A stretch of 64,000 nt of DNA from Bacteroidota bacterium (GTDB taxonomy: Bacteria > Bacteroidota > Bacteroidia > B-17B0 > Aurantibacillaceae), in contig JAUXTT010000017.1 of assembly GCA_030684395.1 (NCBI GenBank), positions 62,001 to 126,000 of the forward strand. Reading direction: 5' to 3'. The notes under the pieces were generated by a model that saw nothing but the letters and a program-made list of their open reading frames with translations, was not told the DNA's origin and searched no databases. Positions 35,919 to 55,746 of this stretch are shown here, piece after piece (within the stretch, counting starts at the first letter, position 1; each line of letters begins with the position of its first letter). A program made the translations under genes and the position numbers.

Positions 35919-37595
35919 CTACTTTTGCAGCGGAGAAATGGCAGAGCGGTCGAATGCGGCAGTCTTGAAAACTGTTGAAGGTAACACTTCCGGGGGTTCG
36001 AATCCCTCTTTCTCCGCACAAAGGGACTGACGCCCATAAAAAAAGCTCAGTCCCTTTTTTATTATAGCAAAATCGCCCGTGTGTCGGGCGATTTCAGCAA
36101 TAATGTAATTCAAATCCGGGGTTCGAAATGCCCCCTTTTCCTTGTCATATACCAGACCGTTAGGGAAGATCAGGTTTTGCAGTTTTTCCTTGAGACCAAT
36201 ACTGCCGTCTTCCCACAGTTTACGCAGGTTTCGGCACAATATCGAGGCTTCATTTAGCATCTCTTTTAGGTTCGAAATGTAAATGTTGCAACCGTTCATT
36301 TCCTTCTGCAAATTTGCATAATCCGCCATATATTTTGCCAAGAAACGATCATAGGTTTCCTTCGGCATTTCTTCTTTTATGAAATGCTTCTCCTCAAGCT
36401 TCTCGATATTCCTTTTAAGCTCCGCCATTCGGTTTTTAAGCTCTTTTTCCTTCTCAACGTTACCTTTGTTCAACTCGTAATAGGTGCTTTCTAATTCAAT
36501 TAAAATGGCTTCTTTTAAATCCTCCTTTATTTGGTAGCCCTCCAAGTCAGTGGCGAATAATTCGTGCATTGACTTTGCGCTTTTGTTGCACTTACATCCG
36601 TTTGTTCGGCACTTATAATAATAAAGATTCTTCTTTTTTACAATATAGCCCGTATAAGGTTGGTCGCAATCTGAACATTTTACAAAAACCTTTAAGGGTA
36701 GATTGATATTTTCTAATTTATGTGGTACTCCATATTTAGTTGACGAAGAAACAATATCATTCACTTTCATAAACTCCTCCTTAGAGATCATTTTTTCATG
36801 AACGCCTTCCACTATTTTGCCATTTAGCATTCCGTGAGAAATTAAACCGCAGTAAAAAGGGTTAATGAAAATTTTATGTAATTGTTGCTTGTACATTTTT
36901 ACACCCAATGCTTGAAGTTTCAAAATAATTTCTTCATTCTTCAAGCCTTGTATTTTCCATTCCCAAGCTTTTTTTATTTTCTTGCCATCAGCGTTCACAA
37001 TTATTTTGCGTTCACCGTTCGACCGCACAATATCATAACCCTGCGGTGGTTTCACTACCCAAATACCTTTTTCAAACTTGGCTTTCATTCCTGCCATAGC
37101 AACTTGTTTGCGTTGATCGTTATCCCAACGTCCAAATAGTAATTGCATATCGTGAAATAAAACTCCGCTTGCATTAGAAGTATCTATCGGTTCAGTTACT
37201 GCTTTAATATGTACGCCATGTTTCTCTCTTAATTCATCGGCAATAGAAATCGCTTTCCCTCCAGTTCTACTGAAGCGAGTCATTTTATAAACTAAGATGG
37301 TTCCTATTTTACCTTTGCTTTGCCGAATAAAACTGAGCATACTCTGAAACTCTTTTCTCGCATCGGTTTTGGCACTTTCATAAGTGTCGCCAAAACGAGA
37401 TACAATAATTAAATTGTTTCGTGCCGCATATTCCTCAATGGCTTTTCGTTGGGTTTCCAAGGAATCGTTCTTGTCGAATTGCCCCTTGCCGGAAACCCTT
37501 GTGTACATTACAACTAAATTGCCTTCAACCTTTTTGACTTTAGTTGTGCTGAACCTTCCAAACTTTGATTCAATTAGTTTTTCATCTGTAGTCAT
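35919..37595 (-). CDS. Large serine recombinase of the integrated element
   Basis: A 558-aa site-specific recombinase. The resolvase domain has the catalytic Ser35 (VMYTRVSGKGQF) and the Arg-rich TRFSRTGGKA helix. A recombinase domain follows (about 180-290, PPQGYDIV, HKIFINPFYCGLISHG), then a zinc ribbon (CSDCDQPYTG...CRTNGCKC) and a coiled coil with the FPNGLVYD tail of Bacteroidota integrases. The last 35 or so residues (from AEKEGFEPPEV on) are the antisense of tRNA-Ser, so the true attP-borne end probably differs. It would catalyse integration and excision of the 22-kb island. Confidence 0.92.
   Translation of the reverse strand: MTTDEKLIESKFGRFSTTKVKKVEGNLVVMYTRVSGKGQFDKNDSLETQRKAIEEYAARNNLIIVSRFGDTYESAKTDARKEFQSMLSFIRQSKGKIGTILVYKMTRFSRTGGKAISIADELREKHGVHIKAVTEPIDTSNASGVLFHDMQLLFGRWDNDQRKQVAMAGMKAKFEKGIWVVKPPQGYDIVRSNGERKIIVNADGKKIKKAWEWKIQGLKNEEIILKLQALGVKMYKQQLHKIFINPFYCGLISHGMLNGKIVEGVHEKMISKEEFMKVNDIVSSSTKYGVPHKLENINLPLKVFVKCSDCDQPYTGYIVKKKNLYYYKCRTNGCKCNKSAKSMHELFATDLEGYQIKEDLKEAILIELESTYYELNKGNVEKEKELKNRMAELKRNIEKLEEKHFIKEEMPKETYDRFLAKYMADYANLQKEMNGCNIYISNLKEMLNEASILCRNLRKLWEDGSIGLKEKLQNLIFPNGLVYDKEKGAFRTPDLNYIIAEIARHTGDFAIIKKGLSFFYGRQSLCAEKEGFEPPEVLPSTVFKTAAFDRSAISPLQK
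35932..36016 (+). tRNA. tRNA-Ser(TGA)
   Basis: An 85-nt tRNA with a 7-bp acceptor stem (GGAGAAA/TTTCTCC), a long variable arm, anticodon loop CTTGAAA giving anticodon TGA, and a T-arm GGGGGTTCGAATCCCTC. The discriminator is G, as expected for serine. CCA is not encoded. The antisense strand is read by the recombinase ORF. Confidence 0.95.
36020..36060 (+). terminator. Terminator after tRNA-Ser
   Basis: AAGGGACTGA (36021-36030) pairs with TCAGTCCCTT (36047-36056), then a T-run. It lies 4 nt after the tRNA, inside the annotated recombinase ORF on the other strand. Confidence 0.8.
36070..36094. terminator. Hairpin in the recombinase 3' region
   Basis: AAATCGCCCG/CGGGCGATTT with a 5-nt loop. 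It is placed where a terminator for the minus-strand recombinase would be expected, yet the ORF continues through it. Confidence 0.5.
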
Positions 37596-40563: not shown

Positions 40564-41724
40564 TTAAAGTCCCTTCATAATATCATTAATCTCTTTTTGA
40601 GGTATTTTTTCTTGCTCTAGCCTTAAATTTCCTTGCTTGAGATAATGGAAAAATTCCAATTCTTTTTCATTCAAACCCTTCAAATTATTTGCAGGTATTT
40701 TTTTATCACTTTTCCCGTCCTGATAATATTTATCAAAGGTAATTTTATCCATTAACAAACTAATTGAATTTTGATAATACAATCTTAGTTGTGATAGAAT
40801 TGCTAATCCGGCAGCATCAATATCACCCCAATAATATATTTGTTTTTGCTTCATCCAGCCAACATCTGACAAATAAGATATTTGAAATCCACCACCACTC
40901 CATATAGCTATTGCGTTTTTCTTTAAAGGTAGAGTAAGGAAATTCATTTCATTTTCGGTAATAAAAATTGCATCTGAAAGTATTTCCTTTTTTATAAAGT
41001 CAGAAAGAGGAATTGAGAAATCGATATACGGGTATTTAGACATCAGTTCTGGACAAAGAAGTCTTACTCGGATAAGTTTCTCTTTGTTTTTTAAATAATA
41101 TCTTGAATGAAAATCTTTTTCCGTAGAATTAATTTTATCCGGAATTAGAGCATTTAGCAAACTACTTATTATGGTTTTGTTCTGCTCGATGAATTTGGTG
41201 TGAACATTTACTGGTAGTTCACGAATAAAATATTTATTATTAATATGATCGTTTTTAAAATAACTCAGAACTTTGATGAGCTCCTCCCATTTATTGGCAT
41301 TCTCAATTATTAATAAAGGATTCTGTAGCATCCAATCTTTTAGTTCAGGAAATTCTCCCAAAATGAAGTTAACATTTTCTTTAAAGACTGTGTATTCCTT
41401 TTCTTTGTGAATTATTTTTAAAAAATCCTCTTCGGTATCAACGGTTATTCTTTTGATGAATTTATTCGAACCAATAATTTTGTAATTCTTTTCTTGCCAT
41501 TCAATGGAAAATCCATATCCTTTAACTTCCTTCGAGTTTTTCACTAACTCATCTTGTGATTTAAAAACACTATCAATATTCTTGTGGATATTTTTAATAT
41601 CATCTAACCCAATTTTTGGCACATCTCGTTTGAAATATGGCGCACCAATTAGAGAAGCCCGCAAAAACGATCCATCATCCCACCACTTTCTGATTTTCGA
41701 CTTTATTTCAATATAACTTAGCAT
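40564..41724 (-). CDS. jetD: Wadjet JetD, TOPRIM nuclease subunit
   Basis: A 386-aa protein with the DUF3322 N-terminal part and a DUF2220-type C-terminal TOPRIM fold. Glu257 in ITENEMNFL and the acidic pair Asp301/Asp303 in YYWGDIDAAGL supply the metal site. In characterised Wadjet systems JetD cleaves circular plasmid DNA once JetABC has extruded it. It shares one base with the end of jetC, and is the last gene of jetABCD. Confidence 0.92.
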   Translation of the reverse strand: MLSYIEIKSKIRKWWDDGSFLRASLIGAPYFKRDVPKIGLDDIKNIHKNIDSVFKSQDELVKNSKEVKGYGFSIEWQEKNYKIIGSNKFIKRITVDTEEDFLKIIHKEKEYTVFKENVNFILGEFPELKDWMLQNPLLIIENANKWEELIKVLSYFKNDHINNKYFIRELPVNVHTKFIEQNKTIISSLLNALIPDKINSTEKDFHSRYYLKNKEKLIRVRLLCPELMSKYPYIDFSIPLSDFIKKEILSDAIFITENEMNFLTLPLKKNAIAIWSGGGFQISYLSDVGWMKQKQIYYWGDIDAAGLAILSQLRLYYQNSISLLMDKITFDKYYQDGKSDKKIPANNLKGLNEKELEFFHYLKQGNLRLEQEKIPQKEINDIMKGL

Positions 41725-44700
41725 TAATTCAAATTTTTCAAATAATTATTCTTTTCCATTTCGTATTCTATCTTCGTAAGGTTCCTTACCAAACTTTTAC
41801 TCCCTGCTGGGTTTGATACAAAGTGAACTGTATTAATATAATCCTCAATAATATTAATCTTTTGTAATGGAGTAACAATCAAAAGTTGCAAATTAAGTTC
41901 TTCGAACAACCTCAACCCATAACGTGTACTTTCATCTGATCCCTTTCCAAAAGCCTCATCAATTACAACAAACCTAAAGGAACGAGTCCGTTCCTCGTTT
42001 CTAGAGAGTCCGAATTGATATGTAATTGCCGATGCCAAAATGGTATAGGCCAATTTCTCCTTTTGTCCTCCAGATTTGCCGGATGAATCGCTAAAATATT
42101 CTTTCTCGGTATTGTCCTCTCTATATCTTTCGCTAGCACCAAAAGTATACCACTGAGTTACATCCGTAACCCTGTTTGTCCAATTTTTATCTATATCGGC
42201 AATACTTTTAAATCTATCTAGCAATTTTTTTACTTCAATAAATTTATCCTCTGAAAAAACATTCGCATCGCCGAAAACGCCTTGTGTAGCACTTTTTAAG
42301 TCGTTTCTGAAATCAGATAATTCCTTAGTGACAATTTTATTTTCTATTATTTTTATGTATGTTCCGGTATTATAATCAATAGTTTCAAGATGTTTATTTA
42401 TTTCCAGTATTTTCTTTTCAATTTCTTTTTCGTCGCGAGAAAGCTTACTACTGAAAATCAATAAGTCTTTAATTGTTCCTTCTCTCAGTCTCTTCCTAAA
42501 GGTTTCTTCATGCTCCGGCAAAGCATCGTTAACAATTTTCTGATGCAATGATCTGACATCCTTTTTAAAACTTATGTTTGCATCAATATCCACAGATTCC
42601 GATTGAAATTCATTTTTAAATTTTTGTATCCCTAGGTTAATAGCATTTTCTCTTGTGTAATTTTTCTTCTCATTGACACCAATTTCAGCGTTCAATTTTT
42701 TCTCATTGAATCTAAATTTCTCGTCTATTTCCTCAAGTATCAATGTTTGCGTACTTACAATTTCATCGATTAACTTTAAATTCTCTTCGCTAATGTTAAT
42801 ATTTTCAATCTTGTATCCACACCAAATATCAATGTGCGAACCGAGATCTTTAAAAATATCTGCATCCGATTTAAAATCGAATAATGCATCCATCTCCGTT
42901 TTATCGATGTTGGGTAGAGTACAGAATGCTTTATGTAAACCAATAGAATTTTTTGTGACTTTATCTTCAAGTACCCCAATGGCTTTCACCCATTTTTTCT
43001 CGGTCGCCACATTCTCATCCAATTCCAGTTTTCGTTCATCCTTTAAGGCCTTAAGTTTATTATATTGGGTGGCTTTTTCACTTGTTTTTAATTCTTTTAG
43101 AGTAGTTTCAGTTGCTGTTTTTGTTATTACAGATTTTTTATAATCAATTTCCCCGAAATCTTTATACTTTTCAAAATCCCGTAGTAAAAGGGTTTTTTCA
43201 GATACAGCCTCTTGTTTTATTTTAATTTTTCTCAATTCTTCGTCAATTTCTGCTACTCTGATGCCCTTTAAGCTAATTTGTTTTTGCAGAGCCTTAATTT
43301 TCTCAACATTTGACCATCCTAAAATATATTTACTCTTGTCATCAATTCGTTGCCTATCATCCTTCTCATATCTTGTTCGACCTGACCGAATTTGCCCTTT
43401 TTTAGTAATTGCATATTCTTCGCGATTAAATTCATCCATAGTTTCGCAACAAACTAAATTGTGCCTTAATTGAAGTTCCGTTTCCAGCCATTCGTAAAAG
43501 TGCGAATCTATATCATCTTTAATTTCAATCTTGTTAATTAACGAGTTCTCTTTTATTTCGTACTTATTTGTCTGCTTGTGCTTTAAGGTTCTTAGATAAA
43601 CAATTTTATTTTTTAAATCAGTATCATTAACATAATCTCTAATTCGAGTAAAATCCTCTTCCTTAACTAAAATGCTAAGACCAAAGTCATGTAGCCTTCT
43701 CTCTATTGCGCCTTGCCATTCCGATTCCTCGGCAGTAACTTGAATTAATTCTCCTACAAATGGAATATCTGAGGGCTCTAACTCCAAATCCTCCGCTATT
43801 TGATTTCTCATTCTTACGAACCTAATATCAATTTGCGAATTTCTGTTTTTAGAGAACTCCAGATCGTCTTCCAATTCTTTCTTTACGTTTAAATTTGTTC
43901 TCTCCTCATATTTAAGCTTATCCCTCTCCGTTATTAATAAATCTCCCTCAATCTTATTTTTTTGCTCAACTTCTTCAATTAGTTTTCTATTGGATAAAAA
44001 TGAATTTTCATCAACATCATTAGTCAATTTAAGTTGATTAGCTAATGAAGAATACTTCCGGTATGCTTCGCTTTGCTTATCTATTAATTGGTCGAGTTCT
44101 GAAATTTGATTCCCTAAACTTTCCAGCTGTTTCCCAATATCAGAACTTAAGATGTCCCTATCAATATCGTGGATTATAGATTCTAACTTATCAATCTCAT
44201 TCCTTAATTGCTCGATTTTATTTAATTGATTTGCGTGATCTTCTTTCGATTCTAATAAGGAGTTTTTTAATAATTCGATTTTCTTATAGCTAAACCAATT
44301 TTGTAAATCATTAAGTATAGTCTTTTGTTGAATTATTTTTTCAGTTAATATTTCATAATCGTCAATTTCTTTGACTACAGGCTCAAGCAACTCAATTTGC
44401 CTTTTAGCTTTTAATACAGAATTATAACTATCGGTAAGATCATCAAATGATTTTATTACGTCAACAATAGACTCTTTAACATCAGTTTTACCTAGCATTT
44501 GTTTTCTTACAAATTCCGTAAGATTTCCTACAGACTTCATAGAAACAGTTTGATTAAATAGGTCAAGAGCCTCATCCCGTTGGTTAATACCAAAGTGCTG
44601 GCAAAATCTCACGGAATATTCTTTGAACGTATCAAAGATTTCAATCCCCGGAATAAGTTTAAGTTTTTTTCTTAATTTCTGTATGTCTTCAAAATTTGAC

Positions 44701-45173
44701 AGATGTTCTACTATGCTTAATTTAGTAGTGGAAACAATATATACTTTTTCAACTTTGCTGTTTTTTATATAAAATACTTGCGCCAAAGTTATTTCTTGGT
44801 TATACCCAGCATTGAAAAAATTTGCCAATAAAATAGAATACCTTTCATCGCTTCTTAAATATTCCGGCTTCGATGAGCCACCATCATCTTTTGTATTTTT
44901 ATGTTCTCCACGAACATATGAATACAAATTTCTTTCTTTACTTTCAGCACCGGCAGCTTTATTATATACGATCTTATGATTAGGAACAATTAAGGTGCTA
45001 ATAGCATCAACTAACGTTGATTTACCGGAACCTATATCCCCAGTTAATAATGAGTTTCGACCGTTGGGGTTAATCGTATAGATTTTACCATCAAAAGTTC
45101 CCCAATTAAGTACTTCCAAACTGTAAAATCGAAAGCCATTCATTAATATATTATCTGCGACCTTATTTTTCAT
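41724..45173 (-). CDS. jetC: Wadjet JetC, SMC-like ATPase
   Basis: A 1149-aa MukB/SbcC-like motor. Walker A is GDIGSGKST at 45-53, the ABC signature SGGQKEK starts at 1034, and Walker B is FVVIDEAF ending in Glu1073. Between lie two long coiled-coil arms (about 270-420 and 640-980) with a hinge around 450-600. It folds back into an SMC dimer that extrudes DNA loops with JetA and JetB. It starts inside the end of jetB (11-nt overlap). Confidence 0.94.
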   Translation of the reverse strand: MKNKVADNILMNGFRFYSLEVLNWGTFDGKIYTINPNGRNSLLTGDIGSGKSTLVDAISTLIVPNHKIVYNKAAGAESKERNLYSYVRGEHKNTKDDGGSSKPEYLRSDERYSILLANFFNAGYNQEITLAQVFYIKNSKVEKVYIVSTTKLSIVEHLSNFEDIQKLRKKLKLIPGIEIFDTFKEYSVRFCQHFGINQRDEALDLFNQTVSMKSVGNLTEFVRKQMLGKTDVKESIVDVIKSFDDLTDSYNSVLKAKRQIELLEPVVKEIDDYEILTEKIIQQKTILNDLQNWFSYKKIELLKNSLLESKEDHANQLNKIEQLRNEIDKLESIIHDIDRDILSSDIGKQLESLGNQISELDQLIDKQSEAYRKYSSLANQLKLTNDVDENSFLSNRKLIEEVEQKNKIEGDLLITERDKLKYEERTNLNVKKELEDDLEFSKNRNSQIDIRFVRMRNQIAEDLELEPSDIPFVGELIQVTAEESEWQGAIERRLHDFGLSILVKEEDFTRIRDYVNDTDLKNKIVYLRTLKHKQTNKYEIKENSLINKIEIKDDIDSHFYEWLETELQLRHNLVCCETMDEFNREEYAITKKGQIRSGRTRYEKDDRQRIDDKSKYILGWSNVEKIKALQKQISLKGIRVAEIDEELRKIKIKQEAVSEKTLLLRDFEKYKDFGEIDYKKSVITKTATETTLKELKTSEKATQYNKLKALKDERKLELDENVATEKKWVKAIGVLEDKVTKNSIGLHKAFCTLPNIDKTEMDALFDFKSDADIFKDLGSHIDIWCGYKIENINISEENLKLIDEIVSTQTLILEEIDEKFRFNEKKLNAEIGVNEKKNYTRENAINLGIQKFKNEFQSESVDIDANISFKKDVRSLHQKIVNDALPEHEETFRKRLREGTIKDLLIFSSKLSRDEKEIEKKILEINKHLETIDYNTGTYIKIIENKIVTKELSDFRNDLKSATQGVFGDANVFSEDKFIEVKKLLDRFKSIADIDKNWTNRVTDVTQWYTFGASERYREDNTEKEYFSDSSGKSGGQKEKLAYTILASAITYQFGLSRNEERTRSFRFVVIDEAFGKGSDESTRYGLRLFEELNLQLLIVTPLQKINIIEDYINTVHFVSNPAGSKSLVRNLTKIEYEMEKNNYLKNLN

Positions 45174-45750
45174 CTGTATTTATGTTTTTCTTGTATTCGT
45201 TTAATTTATCTAATGTGAGTTGTAGTTGTTCTACAGGTAAATACGCGATCAATATCCTGCTAACTTCATAATAGTTTTCCTCATTTTTAAGCTCTCTTAA
45301 AAAACTTAATTCAACCAAGCGGGATATATATATGTCCACTTTATCAAAAATTTTCTTCTCATTGGAAGTATTATTTGGTAAAAATGAAACAAGAAGTTCA
45401 ATGATCTCCGCTTTCCCCATGACAAGCCTTGAGTCATCCCCTTTATTGTCAAACTCAAGCAATTTTCTGCGCAATAATATTGCAAGAATTGAAACCGGGA
45501 AGGAAAGTTGTCGTTTCTCAACCAACTTAGGAAAATAGCCTGCTGTTTCTTCTGTAAAAACCTTTTGCTTAAGAAAAGCGAATCCTTCTGCTTCATTAAT
45601 AATGAGCTCCAAGCCCACTACCGCAAAATAACTGCGAATATTATTTTCGTATTGCAACAACTGCTTCCAGACATTTTCATTATGGTTATATAATACTCCT
45701 TTAAATAAATGTATTATAGGAGTTGAATGTTTTTCTAATTGTTCTGTCAT
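45163..45750 (-). CDS. jetB: Wadjet JetB, DUF4194 subunit
   Basis: A 195-aa DUF4194 protein, the MukE-like accessory subunit of the Wadjet SMC complex. The sequence (LEFDNKGDDSRLVMGKAEIIELLVSFLP followed by a winged-helix-like C-terminus with RELKNEENYYEVSRILIAYLP) fits the family in length and motif. It starts 2 nt after jetA and overlaps jetC, as usual in this operon. Confidence 0.9.
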   Translation of the reverse strand: MTEQLEKHSTPIIHLFKGVLYNHNENVWKQLLQYENNIRSYFAVVGLELIINEAEGFAFLKQKVFTEETAGYFPKLVEKRQLSFPVSILAILLRRKLLEFDNKGDDSRLVMGKAEIIELLVSFLPNNTSNEKKIFDKVDIYISRLVELSFLRELKNEENYYEVSRILIAYLPVEQLQLTLDKLNEYKKNINTDEK

Positions 45751-47241: not shown

Positions 47242-47276
47242 CAAAGATGAATCACATGTGCGCACTCTATCTGCAC
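47242..47276 (-). promoter_or_regulatory. Island operator (degenerate) and -7 box of jetABCD
   Basis: The site GCGCACTCTATCTGCAC (47260-47276) has one perfect CTGCAC arm, the same TCTAT spacer as the site at 49681, and a two-base-changed second arm. On the minus strand it is followed after 10 nt by CATCTTTG (47249-47242), a one-mismatch -7 box. The geometry equals that of the perfect sites. Confidence 0.65.
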
Positions 47277-47297: not shown

Positions 47298-47507
47298 TTA
47301 TTTTTTCTTTTTTACAGAAGGCTTTTTGTCAAGCAATGCAGATTTTACTTCGTCGTCAATTGTCCTCAATTTTGCTTCGCAAAAATCTATTAAGACTTTT
47401 GCTTGCTTCACTTTTTCCGCAAGTGTATCCAATTGAATTGCGTCATCTTCAATTAGGTCAACAAGCTTAGAAAGCTTTTCGTGTGCTTTGTTATAAGTTA
47501 ATTCCAT
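47298..47507 (-). CDS. xseB: Exodeoxyribonuclease VII small subunit
   Basis: A 69-aa helical protein with the family pattern ELTYNKAHEKLSKLVDLIEDDAIQLDTLAEKVKQAKVLIDFCEAKLRTIDDEV. It starts inside the xseA gene (17-nt overlap), so it needs the same transcript. Exo VII degrades single-stranded DNA from both ends. Its location in the island, not next to housekeeping genes, marks it as accessory. Confidence 0.92.
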   Translation of the reverse strand: MELTYNKAHEKLSKLVDLIEDDAIQLDTLAEKVKQAKVLIDFCEAKLRTIDDEVKSALLDKKPSVKKKK

Positions 47508-48645
47508 TTTTTGTTTTTTTAGTTACTGTACTGTGAATTAATTCGTTTTTTAGTATGGTTTTAATTTCTGTATTTGGTTTTATGTCTTTGGGATTAATAA
47601 TGATTCGATCATTACTAGTAATAATAGCATATCCCTTATTCAAGATTGTGGCAGGGCTGTATGCCTTTACCGTTCGTTTAAATTGAAGTAAACTTTCTTT
47701 AGCATCGTCAATCATGCTTTCAGCTGCGTCAAAAAATCTCTCTTTAAAATCGATAATATCACTTTCAAAATTAAAATTGTGATCAACAATACTGGTTGCA
47801 ACCTTAGTTGGTGTTTTGTGTTGCCGAGCCATTAAATCAACTATACTAGTGTTTCTGTCGTGACCTATTCCTGTAAAAACCGGAATAGGAAAAGCTGCCA
47901 CATATTTTGATAGTTCGTAATCATCGAATGGCTGTAAATCCGATTGTGAACCACCTCCACGAGCAATTACTACAATATCATAAGACTCTTTATCTTCCTC
48001 AATTAATTTTAATTTTTGGACAATTAATTTGCTGGAAGAATCGCCTTGGATTTGTGTTAAGAATTCAGAAACATTGAAAATATATTTATGCTTATTTCCT
48101 TTTAACTCCTGATTGAAATCTCTTTGTCCATCGGAGTTTGGCGCAGTTATTAATGCAATACGCTGAATTACGATTGGTAATTCAAGAGTCTTATTAAATG
48201 TAATAAACTGCTCATCAACTCTTCTTATTGTTTTAGGGTTTTCTTTAAGGAGTTTTTCAATCGTTTGTTGGCGTTCAATTTCTACCTGACCTAAAGCATA
48301 AGTGCAATCGATTTCAATTATTTCTAATTTTAGCCCATAGCGATTATTGAAGGAAACAACAACCTTGCAAGTAAGCTCAAGGCCGTTTCTTAGTGTTGTC
48401 TTGGTAGTTTTTTCGAATTTCTCAATTTGATTTAGCGACTTTGCCCAGAAAACAGCATCAATGGATGCAAGAGTAGTTGTCCCTGATTTTTCAATAAACT
48501 TAATAAATCTGTAATTCCTTGAGGGGTCTTGTGGCTTTACATCAGTAATTTCAGCGGTGATCCAAAATGTTTCACCAGCAAATCTATTCTGAATTGTTTC
48601 GTCAATCTCGCTAACGAGTTCTGATAATCTGTATTTCTTCGCCAT
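47491..48645 (-). CDS. xseA: Exodeoxyribonuclease VII large subunit
   Basis: A 384-aa protein: an N-terminal OB fold (about 20-115, FWITAEITDVKPQ and RFIKFIEKSG), then the catalytic domain with RGGGSQSDLQPF at 229-240 and GIGHDRNTSIVDLMA at 259-273, and a C-terminal helical part. The C-terminal coiled coil is shorter than in the E. coli enzyme (384 against about 456 aa), as in many Bacteroidota. It overlaps the upstream nuclease gene by one base. Operon order is DEDD nuclease, xseA, xseB. Confidence 0.93.
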   Translation of the reverse strand: MAKKYRLSELVSEIDETIQNRFAGETFWITAEITDVKPQDPSRNYRFIKFIEKSGTTTLASIDAVFWAKSLNQIEKFEKTTKTTLRNGLELTCKVVVSFNNRYGLKLEIIEIDCTYALGQVEIERQQTIEKLLKENPKTIRRVDEQFITFNKTLELPIVIQRIALITAPNSDGQRDFNQELKGNKHKYIFNVSEFLTQIQGDSSSKLIVQKLKLIEEDKESYDIVVIARGGGSQSDLQPFDDYELSKYVAAFPIPVFTGIGHDRNTSIVDLMARQHKTPTKVATSIVDHNFNFESDIIDFKERFFDAAESMIDDAKESLLQFKRTVKAYSPATILNKGYAIITSNDRIIINPKDIKPNTEIKTILKNELIHSTVTKKTKNGINL

Positions 48646-49625
48646 TAGTTTAAATATATCTGTTTAACAATTGAGGCCATCGATTTCACATCGTCTTCGT
48701 TATAGTCGCAAAGTTTTTGGTAGCCATTGAACTTCTTCAAATTGCTCGCATATTGAGAATATAAAATTGCAACTTGCTGCCCATCCATATTTGGATGTTT
48801 AAAATTATACCCGTAAAATTCCCCCAAGTCACCAAGGGTGTAAGCTTTTATTGGAAAAGCTAAGGAGGCTTTTATGTCAAGTAAAATATCGTCAAAAACT
48901 AAATGACTGTGATTTAATCTTTCCTCATCAAATCTTTTTCTCAAAACTCTTTCGTCAAATCTTGAACCCGAATATGAAATGATTGGCTCATTACAATGAG
49001 CTGATAAAATTTCTAAACATTGCTTGATTATTTTTGGTTCATCATTTGGTTTGTTTGCAACTAATTGAATAAATTCATTGGTTTTAGAAATATAAATGCC
49101 AATCATCCAAACTGTTCGTTGAAACAAATCAGTTTCTATATCCAAATAAATTGGATTGGAAGAAATCCTTTTTAGCTCTTTAATTTTTATTATTCTATTA
49201 TGGTAGACAGCTAATCCTCTTAAATAAAATGGTAGCCCTCCTTTTTCTGTCCAACCTAAAGTTTTTGAAACTCCAGTAACACCTGCATTAACAAAGTCCT
49301 CAACGGTTTTTATTCCGGCTGTATTAAATTTTGAAAAGGTGCTTCCGCCAATTCCGTTAATTTCAGAAACACTTAGTTTGCTAGTTTTAATTTTTGCCGG
49401 GTGATCGTTTGGTGCAGTAAAAGGATGTGAGATTAAGTTTACCTTATCAAAAGTTTTCTTAATAATTGTTGGTGTCTCAACAGGTACAGTTTTTTTGACT
49501 TTAAGCTGTACTTTTTTTGCTCCTTTTTTTATTTCAGTCTTCGACTTGGACTTTTTAACTTCCTTTTTTAAGGCTGTTTTAGACTTTGATTTTTTAACTG
49601 CTGATTGCTTTAGTTTTGATTTCAT
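48645..49625 (-). CDS. Predicted DEDD nuclease with Lys-rich tail and HhH motif
   Basis: A 326-aa protein. The first 55 residues are a histone-H1-like run of Lys, Ser and Val (KKSKSKTALKKEVKKSKSK). A helix-hairpin-helix-like unit follows (about 84-120, VSEINGIGGSTFSKFNTAG). The catalytic domain is of the RNase H_2/YprB type: DIETD (Asp162, Glu164), SGSRFDERVL (Asp224) and YNEDDV (Tyr308, Asp312), forming a DEDDy-like site. It leads an operon with xseA and xseB, so it may cooperate with Exo VII to degrade DNA. It follows a perfect island operator. Confidence 0.75.
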   Translation of the reverse strand: MKSKLKQSAVKKSKSKTALKKEVKKSKSKTEIKKGAKKVQLKVKKTVPVETPTIIKKTFDKVNLISHPFTAPNDHPAKIKTSKLSVSEINGIGGSTFSKFNTAGIKTVEDFVNAGVTGVSKTLGWTEKGGLPFYLRGLAVYHNRIIKIKELKRISSNPIYLDIETDLFQRTVWMIGIYISKTNEFIQLVANKPNDEPKIIKQCLEILSAHCNEPIISYSGSRFDERVLRKRFDEERLNHSHLVFDDILLDIKASLAFPIKAYTLGDLGEFYGYNFKHPNMDGQQVAILYSQYASNLKKFNGYQKLCDYNEDDVKSMASIVKQIYLN

Positions 49626-49662: not shown

Positions 49663-49697
49663 CAAAAGTGTAGGTAATATGTGCAGTCTATCTGCAC
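49663..49697 (-). promoter_or_regulatory. Island operator and -7 box of the nuclease/xse operon
   Basis: GTGCAGTCTATCTGCAC (49681-49697) is a perfect inverted repeat with a 5-nt spacer. On the minus strand it is followed after exactly 10 nt by CACTTTTG (49670-49663), one mismatch from TAnnTTTG. It lies 55 nt before the nuclease start. Confidence 0.8.
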
Positions 49698-49757: not shown

Positions 49758-50906
49758 TTAATAAGGTTTTTCTTTGGTGTATTTTTCTTTCGTTTTTTTA
49801 ACTTGTTTTATACACGTTATTTTATTTTCGGTATTAATCCCAAATTCTAACTGAACTTTACTGTTTTGAAATTTTTTAAGCTTAGGCCTATAACAAGTAT
49901 ACTCTGTCCAAAATCTCCAACGGGTTATACTATCAGCCTTTGAACTTGGGTAGAGGCTTTCTTTATCTATTGAGTTTTTATTATCAATATACTCGGTATT
50001 TTGTTGTCTTATGATATCAATTTCCGTTGGGTTAACGTTGTATCTAAAATAAAATGTATCTACGTTGCTGGCGAAATATTCGTGTGCATCACTATTAAGA
50101 TCGTTGCTGCTATTAAAATAGCGAATTAAAAAGTCATAAACCTGATCTTTATTCATATGAGTTTTCGCGGCAACTGTATGTTTTGCTTTCTTATTAGAAT
50201 TTTCAAAATAAAAATGATAAACCAAATAAGCTAGGCCTGTGCCTATTAATAATAATAAGAAACTAGCCCTTTGCTTTTTGCGTCTAATCGCATTCTTATA
50301 CTGTTTTGATTGTTTTAAAATGCTAAGGTCTGGGATATTAAAAGGATTTTTCTCGAAGTTCTTTTTTATTTCATCCAATTCTTCCTTAGATGGTTCCTTT
50401 ATTTTTTCTTGACTGGCATAAATGTTCTTTGAGAAATCTGCATAATCTCCCTTTAAATAAATTTCAAAGAACCAGGATATTACATCTTTAAAGGAATCGT
50501 AAACACTTTCAATTGTAGAATCCCTTATTAAATTAACCTGCGCATTATTATCACTCTCCTGATGATGTGAATTCTTATTTCTCCAGTTCTTAATGTTATA
50601 GAAGTCATCTGAAATTACTTGAGTAATTATTTTATTCTTTTTTAAATGAAAAATGCAATCATCTAAAGTGGGCTGATTATCCGGATTAATCTTTCCATTT
50701 TGGGGTCGGCATGTGACAATAATTTTCTCCTTTCGAACAATATAATTTACCAACGCTTCTAAATTCTTACCTGCTCTTAATAAATATAATTCCTTTAAAT
50801 CCTCCTTTTCATTTTTATCAATAGCCTTCTTTAGTTTATTATATGTTCCAACTAATTCAAACAGTTTGACGTTAAGAAGTTCTATGTTTTTATTTACATT
50901 TTCCAT
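49758..50906 (-). CDS. HEPN-like/DUF4145-type protein with membrane anchor
   Basis: A 382-aa protein in the WYL transcript (37 nt after it). The N-terminal 150 residues are helical, with the word NWRNKNSHHQ giving Arg109-x4-His114, the HEPN RNase signature, preceded by the GKNLEALVNYI segment of DUF4145-like proteins. A membrane helix lies at about 214-234. The last 145 residues are a soluble domain (YRFWTEYTCYRPKLKKF-type strands; AHEYFASNVDTFYFRYNVNP). A membrane-tethered HEPN effector beside a repressor suggests a toxin or abortive-infection role. This is inferred, not proven. Confidence 0.6.
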   Translation of the reverse strand: MENVNKNIELLNVKLFELVGTYNKLKKAIDKNEKEDLKELYLLRAGKNLEALVNYIVRKEKIIVTCRPQNGKINPDNQPTLDDCIFHLKKNKIITQVISDDFYNIKNWRNKNSHHQESDNNAQVNLIRDSTIESVYDSFKDVISWFFEIYLKGDYADFSKNIYASQEKIKEPSKEELDEIKKNFEKNPFNIPDLSILKQSKQYKNAIRRKKQRASFLLLLIGTGLAYLVYHFYFENSNKKAKHTVAAKTHMNKDQVYDFLIRYFNSSNDLNSDAHEYFASNVDTFYFRYNVNPTEIDIIRQQNTEYIDNKNSIDKESLYPSSKADSITRWRFWTEYTCYRPKLKKFQNSKVQLEFGINTENKITCIKQVKKTKEKYTKEKPY

Positions 50907-50942: not shown

Positions 50943-51941
50943 TTACTTAATATTCTTAACTCTTTCTAAAATTTTATTTTTAAAATGATCGGGCGATAAA
51001 ATTTCAACCTTGTCACCATGTGATAATAATAGTGATTCTAACTCGTAATTCGGCCTCACTTCAATTGATATAATTACAAATCCATTTTCTTCACTTTTCT
51101 TTTTTTGCGAACCATGTAAGGGTTTTGATTCAATATATGGCCAGTGTTCTTTACTAATTCTTAATAAAATTTTTTCAATACTAACTTCTTCCTTAACCGT
51201 TACACCAACTATATCTTCAAAATATTCGTCAAAATTAATAGCTTTATTTTTCAGAAATTTAAGCTTGATTTCTTTTATTTTCTGTATCCTGTCAAGCGCT
51301 AAATTTCTAATTTTTCCAATTTCATTATCGTAACCAAAACAGAACCACCGATTATTATACTGCTTTAGATAATACGGATGTATGACTACATCGTACTCGT
51401 TTAATGACTTAAAATCCTTGTAGGTAACCTGAATAACTCTTTCGTTTAATATTGCATTGAACAAAGTTGAAATATACTTAACAGCAGTATAATCCTTGTT
51501 TTCATCAAATCCAATAATTTTTTCAGCCCCTTTTTTCAAACCAAAACTAGATTCAAATTTAGCAACAACTTCATCAACCCATTCAAATTGTGGCATTCCT
51601 TGAAAGCGTGATAGTATCATTAAAGCCTCTTTCATTTGTGCAGCTTCAGAATCATTTAGTCCTTTATCTCTTATAGAAAATTTGGTGTCAATATAGCGGT
51701 AGTATACTTCCTTTCCATCCTTCTTTTTATCCAATTCAATTTTATATCCGGAATCACTCTCCATGAACTTAATATCCTCATAAAGCTGCCTTCTTTTAAT
51801 TCCATCTGACTCAGGATCGATATATTGAATAGCTTCATTACATGCCTTTAATAGATCATTTATATAAAAATTTTTTCCCGGGTTGCGAAAGCATTTATCA
51901 AGTGCCAGATATCTAATTGTCGCGTGTTTATTTGTTGCCAT
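50943..51941 (-). CDS. WYL-domain transcriptional regulator of the island
   Basis: A 332-aa regulator. The N-terminal winged helix (about 1-85; ATIRYLALDKCFRNPGKNFY, then RRQLYEDIKFMESDSGY) is followed by the WYL domain (about 150-250, HPYYLKQYNNRWFCFGYD, so the WYL triad reads Trp199-Phe200-Cys201) and the usual WCX-like C-terminus (EVRPNYELESLLLSHGDKVEIL). WYL regulators sense a ligand, often a nucleic-acid-derived one, and repress defence operons in BREX and CBASS. Two palindromes lie upstream of its own start, one only 9 nt before the ATG, which points to autoregulation. Confidence 0.9.
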   Translation of the reverse strand: MATNKHATIRYLALDKCFRNPGKNFYINDLLKACNEAIQYIDPESDGIKRRQLYEDIKFMESDSGYKIELDKKKDGKEVYYRYIDTKFSIRDKGLNDSEAAQMKEALMILSRFQGMPQFEWVDEVVAKFESSFGLKKGAEKIIGFDENKDYTAVKYISTLFNAILNERVIQVTYKDFKSLNEYDVVIHPYYLKQYNNRWFCFGYDNEIGKIRNLALDRIQKIKEIKLKFLKNKAINFDEYFEDIVGVTVKEEVSIEKILLRISKEHWPYIESKPLHGSQKKKSEENGFVIISIEVRPNYELESLLLSHGDKVEILSPDHFKNKILERVKNIK

Positions 51942-51950
51942 AATTAATGT

Positions 51951-51967
51951 GTGCAGATACTCTGCAC
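51951..51967. promoter_or_regulatory. Island operator in the WYL 5' region
   Basis: GTGCAGATACTCTGCAC, a perfect inverted repeat with a 5-nt spacer, 9 nt upstream of the WYL start codon. It would block transcription or ribosome access. Confidence 0.75.
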
Positions 51968-52018: not shown

Positions 52019-52067
52019 CAAAGCTACCATATGTGCAGAACTACTGCACACATCTACTTTTCCTTTG
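52019..52067. promoter_or_regulatory. Divergent promoter with shared island operator
   Basis: GTGCAGAACTACTGCAC (52033-52049) is a perfect inverted repeat. On the plus strand TTCCTTTG (52060-52067) follows after 10 nt and serves the 65-aa/radical SAM genes. On the minus strand a perfect TAGCTTTG (52026-52019) follows after 6 nt and serves the WYL gene. One bound dimer could shut both directions. Confidence 0.7.
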
Positions 52068-52289: not shown

Positions 52290-53534
52290 ATGAAAAAAGC
52301 TTTAGTAGTTTCATACAATATTGTCAGGGATGGCGAAGAGGCAATACCATTATCCATAGCTTCAATAATGGCCTATGTAAAAAGTGATCCTGAATACGGA
52401 TTCAAGTTTGAAGTGGATCACTTGCCTTTTAATCTTCTTGTAGAAAAAGAAAATTTAAGTGAGTTTGGAAATTGTTTTAAAAATATATCCCTTAATGACT
52501 ATCAATTTATTGCAATTTCCTGTTTTGTGTGGAATGAGTATTTAATAAATCCTTTGATGAAGTATTTGCGCTACGCAGGGTACAAGAATAAAATCATATT
52601 AGGTGGAAGCCAAATCACTTATGCAAATAAGGAACAACTTCGAACAGAATATCCGGATTGCGATATTTTTATATCAAGTTATGCTGAAAAAAGTTTTCTA
52701 GAGGTTTTAAAAAATGAAGATGAGAAAAAGTTCTATTACAATTCTGCTTTGGATTTTACTTGTGTTCCTTCGCCTTACTTAACCGGAACATTGCCTATGG
52801 AACAGGGTCATAAAATGATAAGATGGGAGACCAAAAGAGGTTGTCCTTTTAAATGTTCATTCTGCGCACATCGTAATTTGGAAAATGGACGAGTTCATTA
52901 TATGCAGTTAGAAAAAGCATTTAGTGAATTAGCATTATTTAAACAAAAGGAAATAAAGCGAATTAATGTATTAGACCCAATCTTTAATATGGGCAATCAT
53001 TATCTAGAAATTATGAAGGAGATAGATCGGTTAAAATTTACAAACACAAATTTCACATATCAATCTAAGATAGAGCTGTTGACTAAGAGGGACGGTTCGG
53101 AATTTTTAAATTTGATAGAAAAAACCAACGCCCATCTGGAATTAGGATTGCAAACCATCATACCGGAAGAATATGAAGTCATTGAAAGAAAAAATAATAC
53201 AAAAACAATTGAGGAACAATTAGAAGTGCTCAACAAAAGAAATATTTCTTTTGAAGTGAGCCTTATTTATGGTTTACCGAATCAAACGCTTGATAGTTTT
53301 AAAAGAAGCATTGAGTTTGTTCAGAATAAAGGCTGCAAAAAAATTACAGCTTGGCCGTTAATGTTATTGAAAGGGACGCCTTTGTTTTTTGAAAGAGATA
53401 AATGGAATTTGAAAGAAGAAGTGATTGGGGATTTTGACATTCCTGTAGTTACGTCAAGCGCTACTTTCAACAAAGATGAGTGGTTTGAGATGGAAGAGGT
53501 AGCAAAGGGTTTAGTAAATAACATGAGACTCTAA
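52290..53534 (+). CDS. B12-binding-type radical SAM enzyme
   Basis: A 414-aa enzyme. The N-terminal 160 residues form a B12-binding-like Rossmann domain (PLSIASIMAYVKSDPEYGF, KIILGGSQITY), without the usual DxHxxG cobalamin His. The radical SAM core has the cluster motif Cys185-x3-Cys189-x2-Cys192 (RGCPFKCSFCAH) and later LELGLQTIIPEEYEVIERKNN and VSLIYGLPNQTLDSF, as in MiaB/HemN-like oxidoreductases. The substrate is unknown. It is not viperin-like. It is under the divergent island operator with the 65-aa gene, so it appears to be part of the defence regulon. Confidence 0.88.
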   Translation: MKKALVVSYNIVRDGEEAIPLSIASIMAYVKSDPEYGFKFEVDHLPFNLLVEKENLSEFGNCFKNISLNDYQFIAISCFVWNEYLINPLMKYLRYAGYKNKIILGGSQITYANKEQLRTEYPDCDIFISSYAEKSFLEVLKNEDEKKFYYNSALDFTCVPSPYLTGTLPMEQGHKMIRWETKRGCPFKCSFCAHRNLENGRVHYMQLEKAFSELALFKQKEIKRINVLDPIFNMGNHYLEIMKEIDRLKFTNTNFTYQSKIELLTKRDGSEFLNLIEKTNAHLELGLQTIIPEEYEVIERKNNTKTIEEQLEVLNKRNISFEVSLIYGLPNQTLDSFKRSIEFVQNKGCKKITAWPLMLLKGTPLFFERDKWNLKEEVIGDFDIPVVTSSATFNKDEWFEMEEVAKGLVNNMRL

Positions 53535-53661: not shown

Positions 53662-55746
53662 ATGACAACACAGCTTTCAGTTCTTAACTCCAACCAGATA
53701 AATAAGTACGGTATGGTTTTTCCAGTTGCAACTTTAGAAAGTGCAATGTGGCAAAGAGCGGTCGAAGGCATGCCAATGCACTTAAGCCACGATATGCATC
53801 GTTTGGTTGGCTGGATGGTTCCTTACGGCTTATACTTTCAACCCAAACTGGTTCGATCACTTGGAGCGGCACTAATTCCGGAAACTGATGAGGAAAATGA
53901 AAGGGTTTCCACAGCTAAGAGAAATTATATTTCAGAAATAACACATGAAGATGCTGAGAAACACTTCTCTTCATTGGAGCCACATATTAAAGAGTTCATT
54001 TCTGGCCAACCAAAGCTATTTAGGGCGGCGGCTTTTTCAATATTCAATGAGGGTATTATTGAAAGAATGTTTCCGCAGCTGAAAACACTATCGCTTAAGG
54101 ACAAAAATGGTCTAATTTTAGTTTCAGAACTATTAGAGGAGTTTACATATAAAGGCCAAGGTGTTTTTTCTCACAAAAAATTGCCCGTTTGTATTTACGC
54201 TAATCCTTACTTCAGAAAATCGCTTTCTCGATTCAACAATTTTCATTACATTTTTTTGGATGAGTTAGTATCACACGTTACAAACCCAGATGTTAAAGTT
54301 AAAATCTCTATAGATTGGGATTTAGTTGGCTACTCTCCTTCTTATGCTACTTCAATAGAATTGGAATTTTGGTTTGGTCCAAAGTACAACGATGATATTT
54401 CTTCAATTACGCCTGGGCTTGCTCTTCACAAAAGTGAAGAGTTCGAAAGATTGTATTATGGTATTTCAGGAACGGAATTCTATTGGAAAATTAATGATGA
54501 TTCGCATGAATTTGAATTAGAAGAATTAAAAGAGGAATCAATTCCAACTAAAGCGGATACCTATGGTTGTAGATACATACATTCAATATACGACGATAAG
54601 AATAAATTTTTTGAACACTTTGACGGAGCCATACGATCTTACGATTCCGAACTTTATATGGAACGCATTGGAATGAAAATGACAGAATTCGGTCGAAGAA
54701 GTCAATATGAAAAACTCTTCAGGATTGACGGAAAATTAGATTTAAAGAGTTGGAAGAGTCTCTCAACAAACTATATGCAGGGAAACCCATTAATATATGA
54801 ATATTTTGGTATAGAAAAGCCCAAAGAAAAATATATAGTGGATAAAACTCCGGCTAACATTATAGAAGAACTTGTTCCTCATAAAACTGATGCGGGTGAT
54901 GGTATACGGATATTAATTTCATATCATAAAAAAAATGAAACTCATAATGCTAGCCATACGGTTTCAATTTGCGATATTTTGGAAATCGGTGAAGTGCGTA
55001 ATCAATTTTTAGAATACGATGTTATCGAATTAAAGAAAGCACTGGATAGATTAGGGAAAACCTTAATTCTGCCGGATGAAGCTTTACTCGGATACGCAGA
55101 AGATTTGTATTGGAACATACCTTGCGTGTTTCACGGATCTGCAATTCCACAGGAAGATTTGAACGCAACTGTACAAGCTTTAAAAAATCTAATCAATGGT
55201 CTTCAAAAAAAGAATAAGAACAAAGTAATTTCTTTCACCGTTTCCTGGAATATGGAAGAAAAAGAGGTTCGCATAAGTGTTATCGGACATGTAACTGATT
55301 TAGCGAATTGGCTTTCTACTTTTTCAACAATTCCCACTGAAAGAGAAAAACTAATTAAATGGATGGAAAAACAAACAGAATATCTAAATAAATTAACCGT
55401 GCCAAATCCTAACAGACCTTCTCTCGAATGTCTTTCACAGTTTGATGGAGTTCTTTTCATTAAGAGGAAAACAATTGGTCCAGAATACAATTTTTCGTTT
55501 GAGAAAATCGTGGGAGGACTTGGTTACACAATGGAAGTTCCCGAAAACAAAATTGAAGTTAAAGAGGCGATAGAGTCAAAACAGCTTTTTCCGGTTATGT
55601 CGTGTATAGTTAAAGCAATGGAGTGCGGTAAATCGGGAAGTGATTACTTGACTAGCCCGCATTCAAAAATACTTGATGCCGGAGTTTATACAATTGTAAG
55701 GGAAATAGACTCAATGGGTGCCTATTGGACAGACAAACCAGCCTAA
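53662..55746 (+). CDS. 694-aa island protein, no family recognised
   Basis: I do not recognise this protein. It has no signal peptide or membrane segment. Notable stretches are VEGMPMHLSHDMHRLVGWMV near residue 35, which recalls the His/Ser-bearing opening of prohead-protease-like folds, and DAGDGIRILISYHKKNETHN, PVMSCIVKAMECGKSGSDYL and the YTIVREIDSMGAYWTD end. The length and mixed alpha/beta content suggest several domains. It precedes the PLD-family gene by 119 nt and the protease by more, in one direction. No island operator is visible before it, so it may have its own promoter. Confidence 0.6.
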   Translation: MTTQLSVLNSNQINKYGMVFPVATLESAMWQRAVEGMPMHLSHDMHRLVGWMVPYGLYFQPKLVRSLGAALIPETDEENERVSTAKRNYISEITHEDAEKHFSSLEPHIKEFISGQPKLFRAAAFSIFNEGIIERMFPQLKTLSLKDKNGLILVSELLEEFTYKGQGVFSHKKLPVCIYANPYFRKSLSRFNNFHYIFLDELVSHVTNPDVKVKISIDWDLVGYSPSYATSIELEFWFGPKYNDDISSITPGLALHKSEEFERLYYGISGTEFYWKINDDSHEFELEELKEESIPTKADTYGCRYIHSIYDDKNKFFEHFDGAIRSYDSELYMERIGMKMTEFGRRSQYEKLFRIDGKLDLKSWKSLSTNYMQGNPLIYEYFGIEKPKEKYIVDKTPANIIEELVPHKTDAGDGIRILISYHKKNETHNASHTVSICDILEIGEVRNQFLEYDVIELKKALDRLGKTLILPDEALLGYAEDLYWNIPCVFHGSAIPQEDLNATVQALKNLINGLQKKNKNKVISFTVSWNMEEKEVRISVIGHVTDLANWLSTFSTIPTEREKLIKWMEKQTEYLNKLTVPNPNRPSLECLSQFDGVLFIKRKTIGPEYNFSFEKIVGGLGYTMEVPENKIEVKEAIESKQLFPVMSCIVKAMECGKSGSDYLTSPHSKILDAGVYTIVREIDSMGAYWTDKPA

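What the first reader, a model, noticed from the sequence alone, without database searches (positions are those of the whole stretch)
47298..49625. Accessory Exo VII operon led by a DEDD nuclease with a histone-like tail
Seen: a nuclease with a Lys-rich H1-like start, an HhH-like unit and a DEDDy-type catalytic set overlaps xseA by one base, and xseA overlaps xseB by 17. Known: Exo VII is a chromosomal repair enzyme usually encoded far from defence genes. Inference: here it is a mobile defence cargo, perhaps degrading single-stranded DNA after JetD cleavage or a phage genome opened by the DEDD enzyme. I know of no described system with this triple.
Basis: partly seen in the sequence, partly recalled or inferred. 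Interest (0 to 1): 0.78.

Follow-up and report, generated by a model that had tools for sequence, protein, structure and literature searches.

The report
Plasmid-cutting system with exonuclease cleanup module
A bacterial gene island carries a known plasmid-cutting machine (Wadjet) beside a DEDD exonuclease and both parts of Exonuclease VII, with a matching DNA control site before each set, which suggests that the two sets work together to cut and then digest invading DNA.

Summary
In detail: a Lys-rich DEDD (RNase_H_2) nuclease overlaps xseA by 1 base, and xseA overlaps xseB by 17. The triple lies in a serine-recombinase island at tRNA-Ser, directly upstream of a complete type I Wadjet (jetABCD). 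New here: (i) a 17-bp palindrome, GTGCA-N7-TGCAC, stands before the triple, before jetA (one mismatch, same spacing) and twice before a WYL regulator gene, so the three units look like one regulon; (ii) in relative L056 the WYL/triple module and its last operator are followed by the regulator of an Mks-type system instead of jetABCD; (iii) in two other relatives a different DEDD-XseA-XseB triple is joined to an MksFEBG run, and the XseA tree gives these triples separate origins. Best reading: an optional, co-regulated exonuclease module for SMC-type plasmid cutters; the DEDD enzyme opens cut ends and ExoVII removes the ssDNA. Shared operator and recurrence are shown; the biochemistry is inferred. 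Four literature searches found no description.

The parts
48645..49625 (-). DEDD exonuclease (PF13482 RNase_H_2) with Lys-rich N-terminal tail and HhH-like unit
47491..48645 (-). xseA, Exonuclease VII large subunit, short form (384 aa; PF02601 positions 178-240 not matched, read as a shortened coiled coil)
47298..47507 (-). xseB, Exonuclease VII small subunit
49681..49697 (.). putative operator GTGCA-N7-TGCAC, exact, 56 bp upstream of the DEDD start
47260..47276 (.). putative operator, one mismatch, 53 bp upstream of the jetA start
51951..51967 (.). putative operator, exact, 10 bp upstream of the WYL start
52033..52049 (.). putative operator, exact, 92 bp upstream of the WYL start, just before a TAGCTTTG box
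50943..51941 (-). WYL/WCX transcriptional regulator, putative controller of the whole set
49758..50906 (-). unknown protein downstream of WYL, one probable membrane segment (by eye); 72% identical copy in L056
45753..47207 (-). jetA (DUF3375), Wadjet type I
45163..45750 (-). jetB (DUF4194)
41724..45173 (-). jetC (SMC-like ATPase)
40564..41724 (-). jetD (DUF3322/JetD_C nuclease)
35919..37595 (-). serine recombinase overlapping the tRNA-Ser gene: left end of the island
35932..36017 (+). tRNA-Ser(TGA), insertion site; L033 has a recombinase with 80% identity at its tRNA-Ser(TGA)

Best explanation
An optional exonuclease module for SMC-type anti-plasmid systems, here joined to Wadjet I in one WYL-controlled regulon. 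Proposed mechanism: the WYL protein represses its own gene, the DEDD-xseAB operon and jetABCD through GTGCA-N7-TGCAC operators until a signal of invading DNA lifts repression. JetABC recognises a small circle and JetD cuts it (established for other Wadjet systems). The DEDD enzyme, held on DNA by its Lys-rich tail and HhH unit, chews 3' strands back from the new ends, and ExoVII turns the exposed ssDNA into oligonucleotides, so that the cut circle cannot be re-joined, repaired or copied. Shown here: gene order, overlaps, domains, the shared sequence motif, exchange of the SMC slot behind xseB, recurrence with an Mks-type system. Inferred: that this WYL protein binds the motif and represses, the substrates, the polarity and the order of action.
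For: Four motif copies at exactly the three promoters; the pattern was taken from two sites and found the two at the WYL gene independently, against 0.02 expected. In L056 the motif recurs before WYL (two), before DEDD, and before the gene that replaces jetA; DNA homology to the window runs through that last site and stops 10 bp before jetA. It is absent from L057 and L058, the triples without Wadjet, and from the jetA promoters of 14 other Wadjet loci (two stray 1-mismatch hits far from jetA). L033 and L133: WYL-MksF-MksE-MksB-MksG-like-DEDD-XseA-XseB on one strand, 3 bases between mksG and DEDD. XseA tree: separate origins for the window-type and Mks-type triples. The two DEDD proteins are 25% identical and not linked by phmmer at 1e-2; L034 shows a third pairing, with a DnaQ-like exonuclease. 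XseA is rare in the family (8 of 49 strong), yet the triples found in it (window, G009, G479) adjoin an SMC system, and L056's adjoins the regulator of one. In E. coli, ExoVII acts on ends of dsDNA cassettes and may need a helicase or another nuclease to expose ssDNA (PMC3434165, passages).
Against: 0 of 14 other JetA loci show XseA or DEDD in the DNA fetched (three hold under 0.5 kb upstream of jetA and one 2.3 kb), and one of three Mks loci of the L033 type (L134) lacks the module, so neither system needs it. MksG of Corynebacterium degrades plasmid DNA by itself on long incubation and its authors propose processive degradation (PMC10123090, abstract and passage), so a separate clean-up step may be unnecessary. 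The closest triples, L057 and L058, stand without Wadjet in the 13.8-15.9 kb held. The Mks link is one event: L033 and L133 are 94-100% identical. A shared motif argues for co-regulation, not joint action. E. coli XseA D241 is N265 here, so activity should be checked; but N is found in 28 of 29 readable relatives. The host has AddB/RecB-type nuclease domains, so it is not obviously short of end-degrading enzymes. DEDD polarity and substrate (DNA or RNA) are unknown.
Confidence: 0.47

Rival explanations
1. Independent second line: DEDD-ExoVII attacks ssDNA of incoming elements (the transferred strand in conjugation, rolling-circle plasmids, ssDNA of phage replication), while Wadjet attacks the finished circle. 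The two share only a regulator and an island.
For: ExoVII is an ssDNA exonuclease (PMC3434165 passages); the triple has its own promoter region and motif; other xseA genes are carried on plasmids (144 records), two of the six looked at beside unrelated defence genes; the triple also exists without Wadjet nearby (L057, L058).
Against: In L033 and L133 the triple is the tail of the Mks run itself, 3 bases after mksG, and the pairing with SMC systems arose more than once.
Confidence: 0.25
2. Self-protection or repair: the exonucleases process breaks that the SMC nuclease makes in the host's own DNA, or trim DNA trapped in the complex, so the set is induced with Wadjet to limit self-damage.
Against: 0 of 14 other Wadjet I loci show such a partner in the DNA fetched, so self-damage does not generally call for a linked one; five of those 14 genomes do have an xseA elsewhere (G049, G242, G423, G611, G695).
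Confidence: 0.13
3. Plain horizontal transfer: a chromosomal DEDD-xseAB repair operon (L057/L058 type) was picked up by the island and serves ordinary DNA repair in a lineage without its own ExoVII.
For: Only xseAB found in the genome; the XseA tree nests the island copies among chromosomal ones; triples in chromosomal settings exist.
Against: The motif shared with jetA and WYL, its absence from L057 and L058, the longer branch of the island copies (0.33 against 0.024) and the separate Mks-linked triple are not expected of a housekeeping gene.
Confidence: 0.13

Closest known systems
Wadjet type I (JetABCD)
   Same: All four proteins match PADLOC type I models; order jetA-B-C-D; BrxR-family WYL regulators are reported co-localised with Wadjet (PMC9122601, passage).
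   Different: Adds a DEDD-XseA-XseB operon under the same putative operator, plus one unknown gene; 0 of 14 other JetA loci show it in the DNA fetched.
MksBEFG (condensin-like anti-plasmid system with MksG nuclease; PMC10123090, abstract and passages)
   Same: L033 and L133 carry MksE (PF21980 4e-36), MksB (DUF3584) and a JetD/MksG-like protein (DUF7281) (families scanned on L033; L133 by tblastn). The name MksF for the first gene rests on its place; it had no family hit.
   Different: The run continues into DEDD, xseA, xseB; the related L134 system lacks them.
Exonuclease VII (XseA-XseB; E. coli structure 8txr)
   Same: OB domain, nuclease domain and small subunit; D176, R229 and H262 align with E. 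coli positions 155, 205 and 238.
   Different: Short coiled coil, N265 for D241, operonic DEDD partner, island location, putative WYL control. The short form and the N are common among chromosomal relatives, so they are subfamily traits.
BrxR-family WYL regulators
   Same: WYL-domain protein near defence genes, inverted-repeat sites at its own and a further promoter (PMC9122601, abstract and passages).
   Different: Published sites are 10-11-bp repeats with 5-bp spacers; here 5-bp arms with a 7-bp spacer at three units. No direct sequence comparison with BrxR was made; binding not tested.

Membership tests
Wadjet type I | JetA, JetB, JetC and JetD of type I adjacent and intact | tested here: met
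   PADLOC JetA1 2.1e-134, JetB1 3.2e-61, JetC1 0, JetD1 4.2e-121; open frames in order
Wadjet type I | cleaves small circular DNA | not testable with these tools
   needs plasmid transformation or in vitro cutting
Exonuclease VII | XseA with OB and Exonuc_VII_L domains plus adjacent XseB | tested here: met
   (XseB over the Pfam cut-off, just under the TIGR01280 one)
Exonuclease VII | active-site residues D155, R205, H238, D241 of E. coli XseA (residue list recalled) | tested here: inconclusive
   first three kept (the 8txr chain itself has Ala at 238); D241 is N265 here, N in 4 of 5 aligned and 28 of 29 readable relatives
DEDD exonuclease, PF13482 RNase_H_2 | profile over cut-off and four acids of the DEDD set | tested here: met
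   83.1 > 22 bits; D162, E164, D224, D312 invariant in 5 of 5
TM0106-type RecB-like nuclease (TIGR03491) | score over curated cut-off | tested here: not met
   82.1 < 97.45 bits
BrxR-family regulator | WYL and WCX domains with palindromic sites upstream of its own gene | tested here: met
BrxR-family regulator | N-terminal winged HTH, relatedness to BrxR and DNA binding | tested here: inconclusive
   no HTH model hit for the window protein in Pfam; BrxR itself was not compared; binding not testable here

The most novel reading that the evidence does not exclude
SMC-type plasmid cutters have recruited, at least twice independently, a two-enzyme DNA end-digestion module (DEDD 3'-5' exonuclease plus Exonuclease VII) as a dedicated downstream step under a common operator, which turns a single cut into complete destruction of the invading DNA without the host's own RecBCD/AddAB.
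Probability: 0.38. Interest if true: 0.78.

Novelty: new variant of a known kind. Interest (0 to 1): 0.62.

Why it matters
Wadjet is described as a cutter of circles that spares linear DNA; the passages that I saw of two reviews describe the cut and name no dedicated clean-up enzyme, although MksG is reported to degrade plasmid further by itself. A co-regulated exonuclease pair would make the fate of the cut plasmid a testable question, would give ExoVII, known as a repair enzyme, a defence job, and shows an operator-marked slot in which SMC systems are exchanged behind a constant WYL/exonuclease module.

Tried and rejected
Second xseA or xseB in the genome: none found. The OB-domain search (PF13742) found 0 of 1 even though the gene's protein has the domain, so that empty answer was not used.

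A phage or plasmid origin of the DEDD proteins: no match in phages or viral contigs; on plasmids 38 records with distant matches to the window protein, those listed being haloarchaea (20 of 38 rows seen), and one Geobacillus hit for the Mks-type protein. No xseA is listed beside the three haloarchaeal genes looked at (PLSDB gene tables are incomplete).

att repeat of the island: no convincing copy of the tRNA end found, so the right boundary is undefined; serine recombinases may use very short cores (recalled).

Structure predictions of the DEDD protein (mean pLDDT 42.6) and of the unknown protein (40.1) were too poor to use; no fold search was run. The DEDD sequence has no match among solved structures up to E 1.

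'Histone-like' as homology: not claimed; the tail is Lys-rich, and I claim only a likely DNA-binding role.

The broad XseA pattern scan of viral contigs (A1) gave nothing; the genome-contig scan used two peptide patterns only, so its 30 loci are not exhaustive. The phylum search with the Mks-type DEDD protein gave 0 of 395; since G009 and G479 would have matched, the sample does not hold them and the empty answer says little.

The tree is the quick one (SH-aLRT only, careful search unfinished), 77 rows; rows under 330 aa and identical rows were dropped. Three changes may be one gain and two losses; starred branches force at least three changes, not three gains.

Full report
OBSERVATION. The minus strand holds, in order of transcription: a WYL regulator (50943-51941), an unknown protein (49758-50906), DEDD nuclease (48645-49625), xseA (47491-48645), xseB (47298-47507), then jetA, jetB, jetC, jetD (47207 down to 40564). 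Overlaps are 1 and 17 bases as reported. Domain calls are clear: RNase_H_2, Exonuc_VII_L with OB domain, Exonuc_VII_S; a complete type I Wadjet. The Lys-rich start has 20 Lys in 55 residues; the next highest of the other 46 ORFs has 10. The left end of the island is a serine recombinase overlapping tRNA-Ser. A family member, G009 (L033), has a recombinase with 80% identity at its tRNA-Ser(TGA). The right end was not found.

IS IT THE ONLY ExoVII? As far as the 98.9%-complete draft shows, yes. PF02601 and PF02609 each find just this copy. Among 80 relatives 24 have any PF02601 match; within the family (49 genomes, own included) 8 have strong matches and 2 weak ones. So most of the family shows no ExoVII, and here it comes on an island. 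With the Mks-type XseA as query, 144 of 395 class genomes match at 1e-20, so patchiness is wider than the family.

THE REGULON. A repeat search showed two similar 21-mers (86% identical), one before jetA and one before the DEDD gene. The derived pattern found two further sites, both at the WYL promoter (4 matches with up to 3 mismatches, 0.02 expected in shuffles). The core is GTGCA-N7-TGCAC: exact at 49681, 51951 and 52033, one mismatch at 47260; the only other hit with one mismatch is inside the recombinase gene. The sites before jetA and DEDD lie 53 and 56 bp from the start codons. The distal WYL site closely precedes TAGCTTTG, which fits the Bacteroidota -7 consensus TAnnTTTG (consensus recalled). 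BrxR-family WYL regulators bind inverted repeats at their own and a second promoter and occur near many defence systems, Wadjet included (PMC9122601, abstract and passages).

RELATIVES. A scan of the collection of one genome for each of 84,980 species, with two peptide patterns from three XseA sequences, gave 30 loci, all with Bacteroidota or 'uncultured bacterium' titles. The DEDD protein precedes xseA in 3 of 30 (phmmer check; L085 is cut by its contig end). L056 (titled Sphingobacteriaceae; DEDD 91% identical over the alignment, XseA 95%) repeats RadSAM, WYL, unknown, DEDD, xseA, xseB, but behind xseB comes WYL2, 94% identical to the regulator of the L033 system; the contig ends there. All sites recur, including one (1 mismatch) before WYL2, and homology with the window ends 10 bp before jetA. 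So the SMC slot was exchanged while module and site stayed; that an Mks operon follows WYL2 in L056 is inference. L057 and L058 carry the triple (DEDD 76 and 78% identical) among ordinary genes such as a homogentisate dioxygenase-like protein and a sensor kinase (my reading, not profile-tested), with no WYL, Jet or site in the 15.9 and 13.8 kb held. For the other 27 loci no DEDD relative was found. Nine genomes checked, including those of L056, L057, L058, G009 and G060, each have one PF02601 gene, matched in two pieces.

A SEPARATE, SIMILAR TRIPLE. In L033 and L133 (G009, G479; 94-100% identical), WYL2-MksF-MksE-MksB-MksG-like-DEDD-XseA-XseB form one strand-wise run; MksB is split in L033 and whole (1227 aa) in L133. 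This run has its own 17-bp motif, TTGACGGAAATTGACAA, before WYL2 and again before mksF, an imperfect palindrome with the same 5-7-5 layout. Its DEDD protein is 25% identical to the window's, not linked by phmmer, yet also Lys-rich (15-16 Lys in 55). A third case, L034, has a DnaQ-like exonuclease ending 2 bases before xseA near a contig end. The XseA tree (quick method, 77 rows) needs three changes of the 'DEDD upstream' label, and starred branches force three. The island pair window+L056 sits on a branch of 0.33, against 0.024 for chromosomal L057+L058.

LIMITS OF THE ASSOCIATION. Of 295 class genomes 15 have JetA; in the 14 others no XseA or DEDD was seen in the DNA fetched; ten of these hold about 7-8 kb upstream of jetA, L119 2.3 kb, and L122, L129, L130 under 0.5 kb. 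Five of the 14 genomes have an xseA elsewhere. Of three Mks loci of the L033 type in 87 order genomes (all of the same family), two, nearly identical, have the triple and one (L134) does not. The window-type DEDD protein is rare: 1 of 395 phylum genomes (the own one), 2 of 100 relatives (own plus a weak hit). It is therefore an add-on.

MECHANISM. Wadjet cuts circular but not linear DNA (PMC10586767, passages), so a cut plasmid is left as linear DNA. ExoVII is an ssDNA exonuclease; in E. coli it acts on ends of dsDNA cassettes and the authors suggest that a helicase or other nuclease may first have to expose ssDNA (PMC3434165, passages). A DEDD exonuclease with DNA-binding parts could do that. 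This is inference; polarity and substrate are unmeasured. Against the need for it, MksG of Corynebacterium degrades plasmid by itself on long incubation (PMC10123090, abstract and passages). XseA keeps three of four catalytic residues recalled for E. coli; the fourth, D241, is N265, as in 28 of 29 readable relatives. The host has AddB/RecB-like nuclease domains (2 places), so the module would add to, not replace, host functions.

NOVELTY. Literature searches in the held open library for Wadjet with exonuclease VII (1 paper, on Thermococcus restriction-modification, seen in the listing only), exodeoxyribonuclease VII with defense system and DEDD (0), xseA with defense island (0) and exodeoxyribonuclease VII with anti-plasmid (0) found no description; subscription papers and preprints are not held. 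PADLOC models give no hit to XseA or XseB, and only a weak one to the DEDD protein (CRISPR-associated DEDDh, 0.0075). I file it as a new variant of a known kind: an SMC-type anti-plasmid system with a co-regulated exonuclease module.

Noticed in passing
49758-50906: Unknown 382-aa protein between WYL and DEDD: N-terminal part with an RNKNSHH stretch (HEPN-like RxxxxH by eye; the L056 copy reads GNRNA-H there), a probable membrane helix near 215-235, and a C-terminal part that is nearly identical in L056. No family hit over cut-off; model unusable.
   Followed up: partly
52290-53534: Radical SAM / B12-binding-like protein divergent from WYL; kept beside the module in L056 at 86% identity.
   Followed up: no
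38655-40526: CHAT-domain protein on the + strand between the recombinase and jetD.
   Followed up: no
55866-57056: PLD-type protein like the NgoFVII restriction endonuclease N-terminal domain; L133 also carries a PLD protein behind its triple.
   Followed up: no
53662-55746: 694-aa protein without a Pfam match up to E 0.1, in the island.
   Followed up: no
L033:13299-16981: MksB is split into two open frames (551 and 594 aa) in G009 but whole in the near-identical L133, so the G009 Mks system may be inactive.
   Followed up: partly
L056:744-3215: nSTAND1 NTPase with HNH domain and HEAT repeats (Avs-like design, recalled) near the L056 module.
   Followed up: no
L121:11198-13985: Another WYL regulator (37% to the L033 one) stands before a jetA in G423, so WYL control of Wadjet may be wider; no GTGCA-N7-TGCAC site there.
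   Followed up: no
L135:2695-6612: Chryseobacterium plasmid with xseA-xseB shortly after Pycsar effector and cyclase genes; another plasmid (L136) has them after a HsdR gene.
   Followed up: no
L034:13526-15273: DnaQ-like DEDDh exonuclease directly upstream of xseA: a third type of DEDD-ExoVII pairing.
   Followed up: partly
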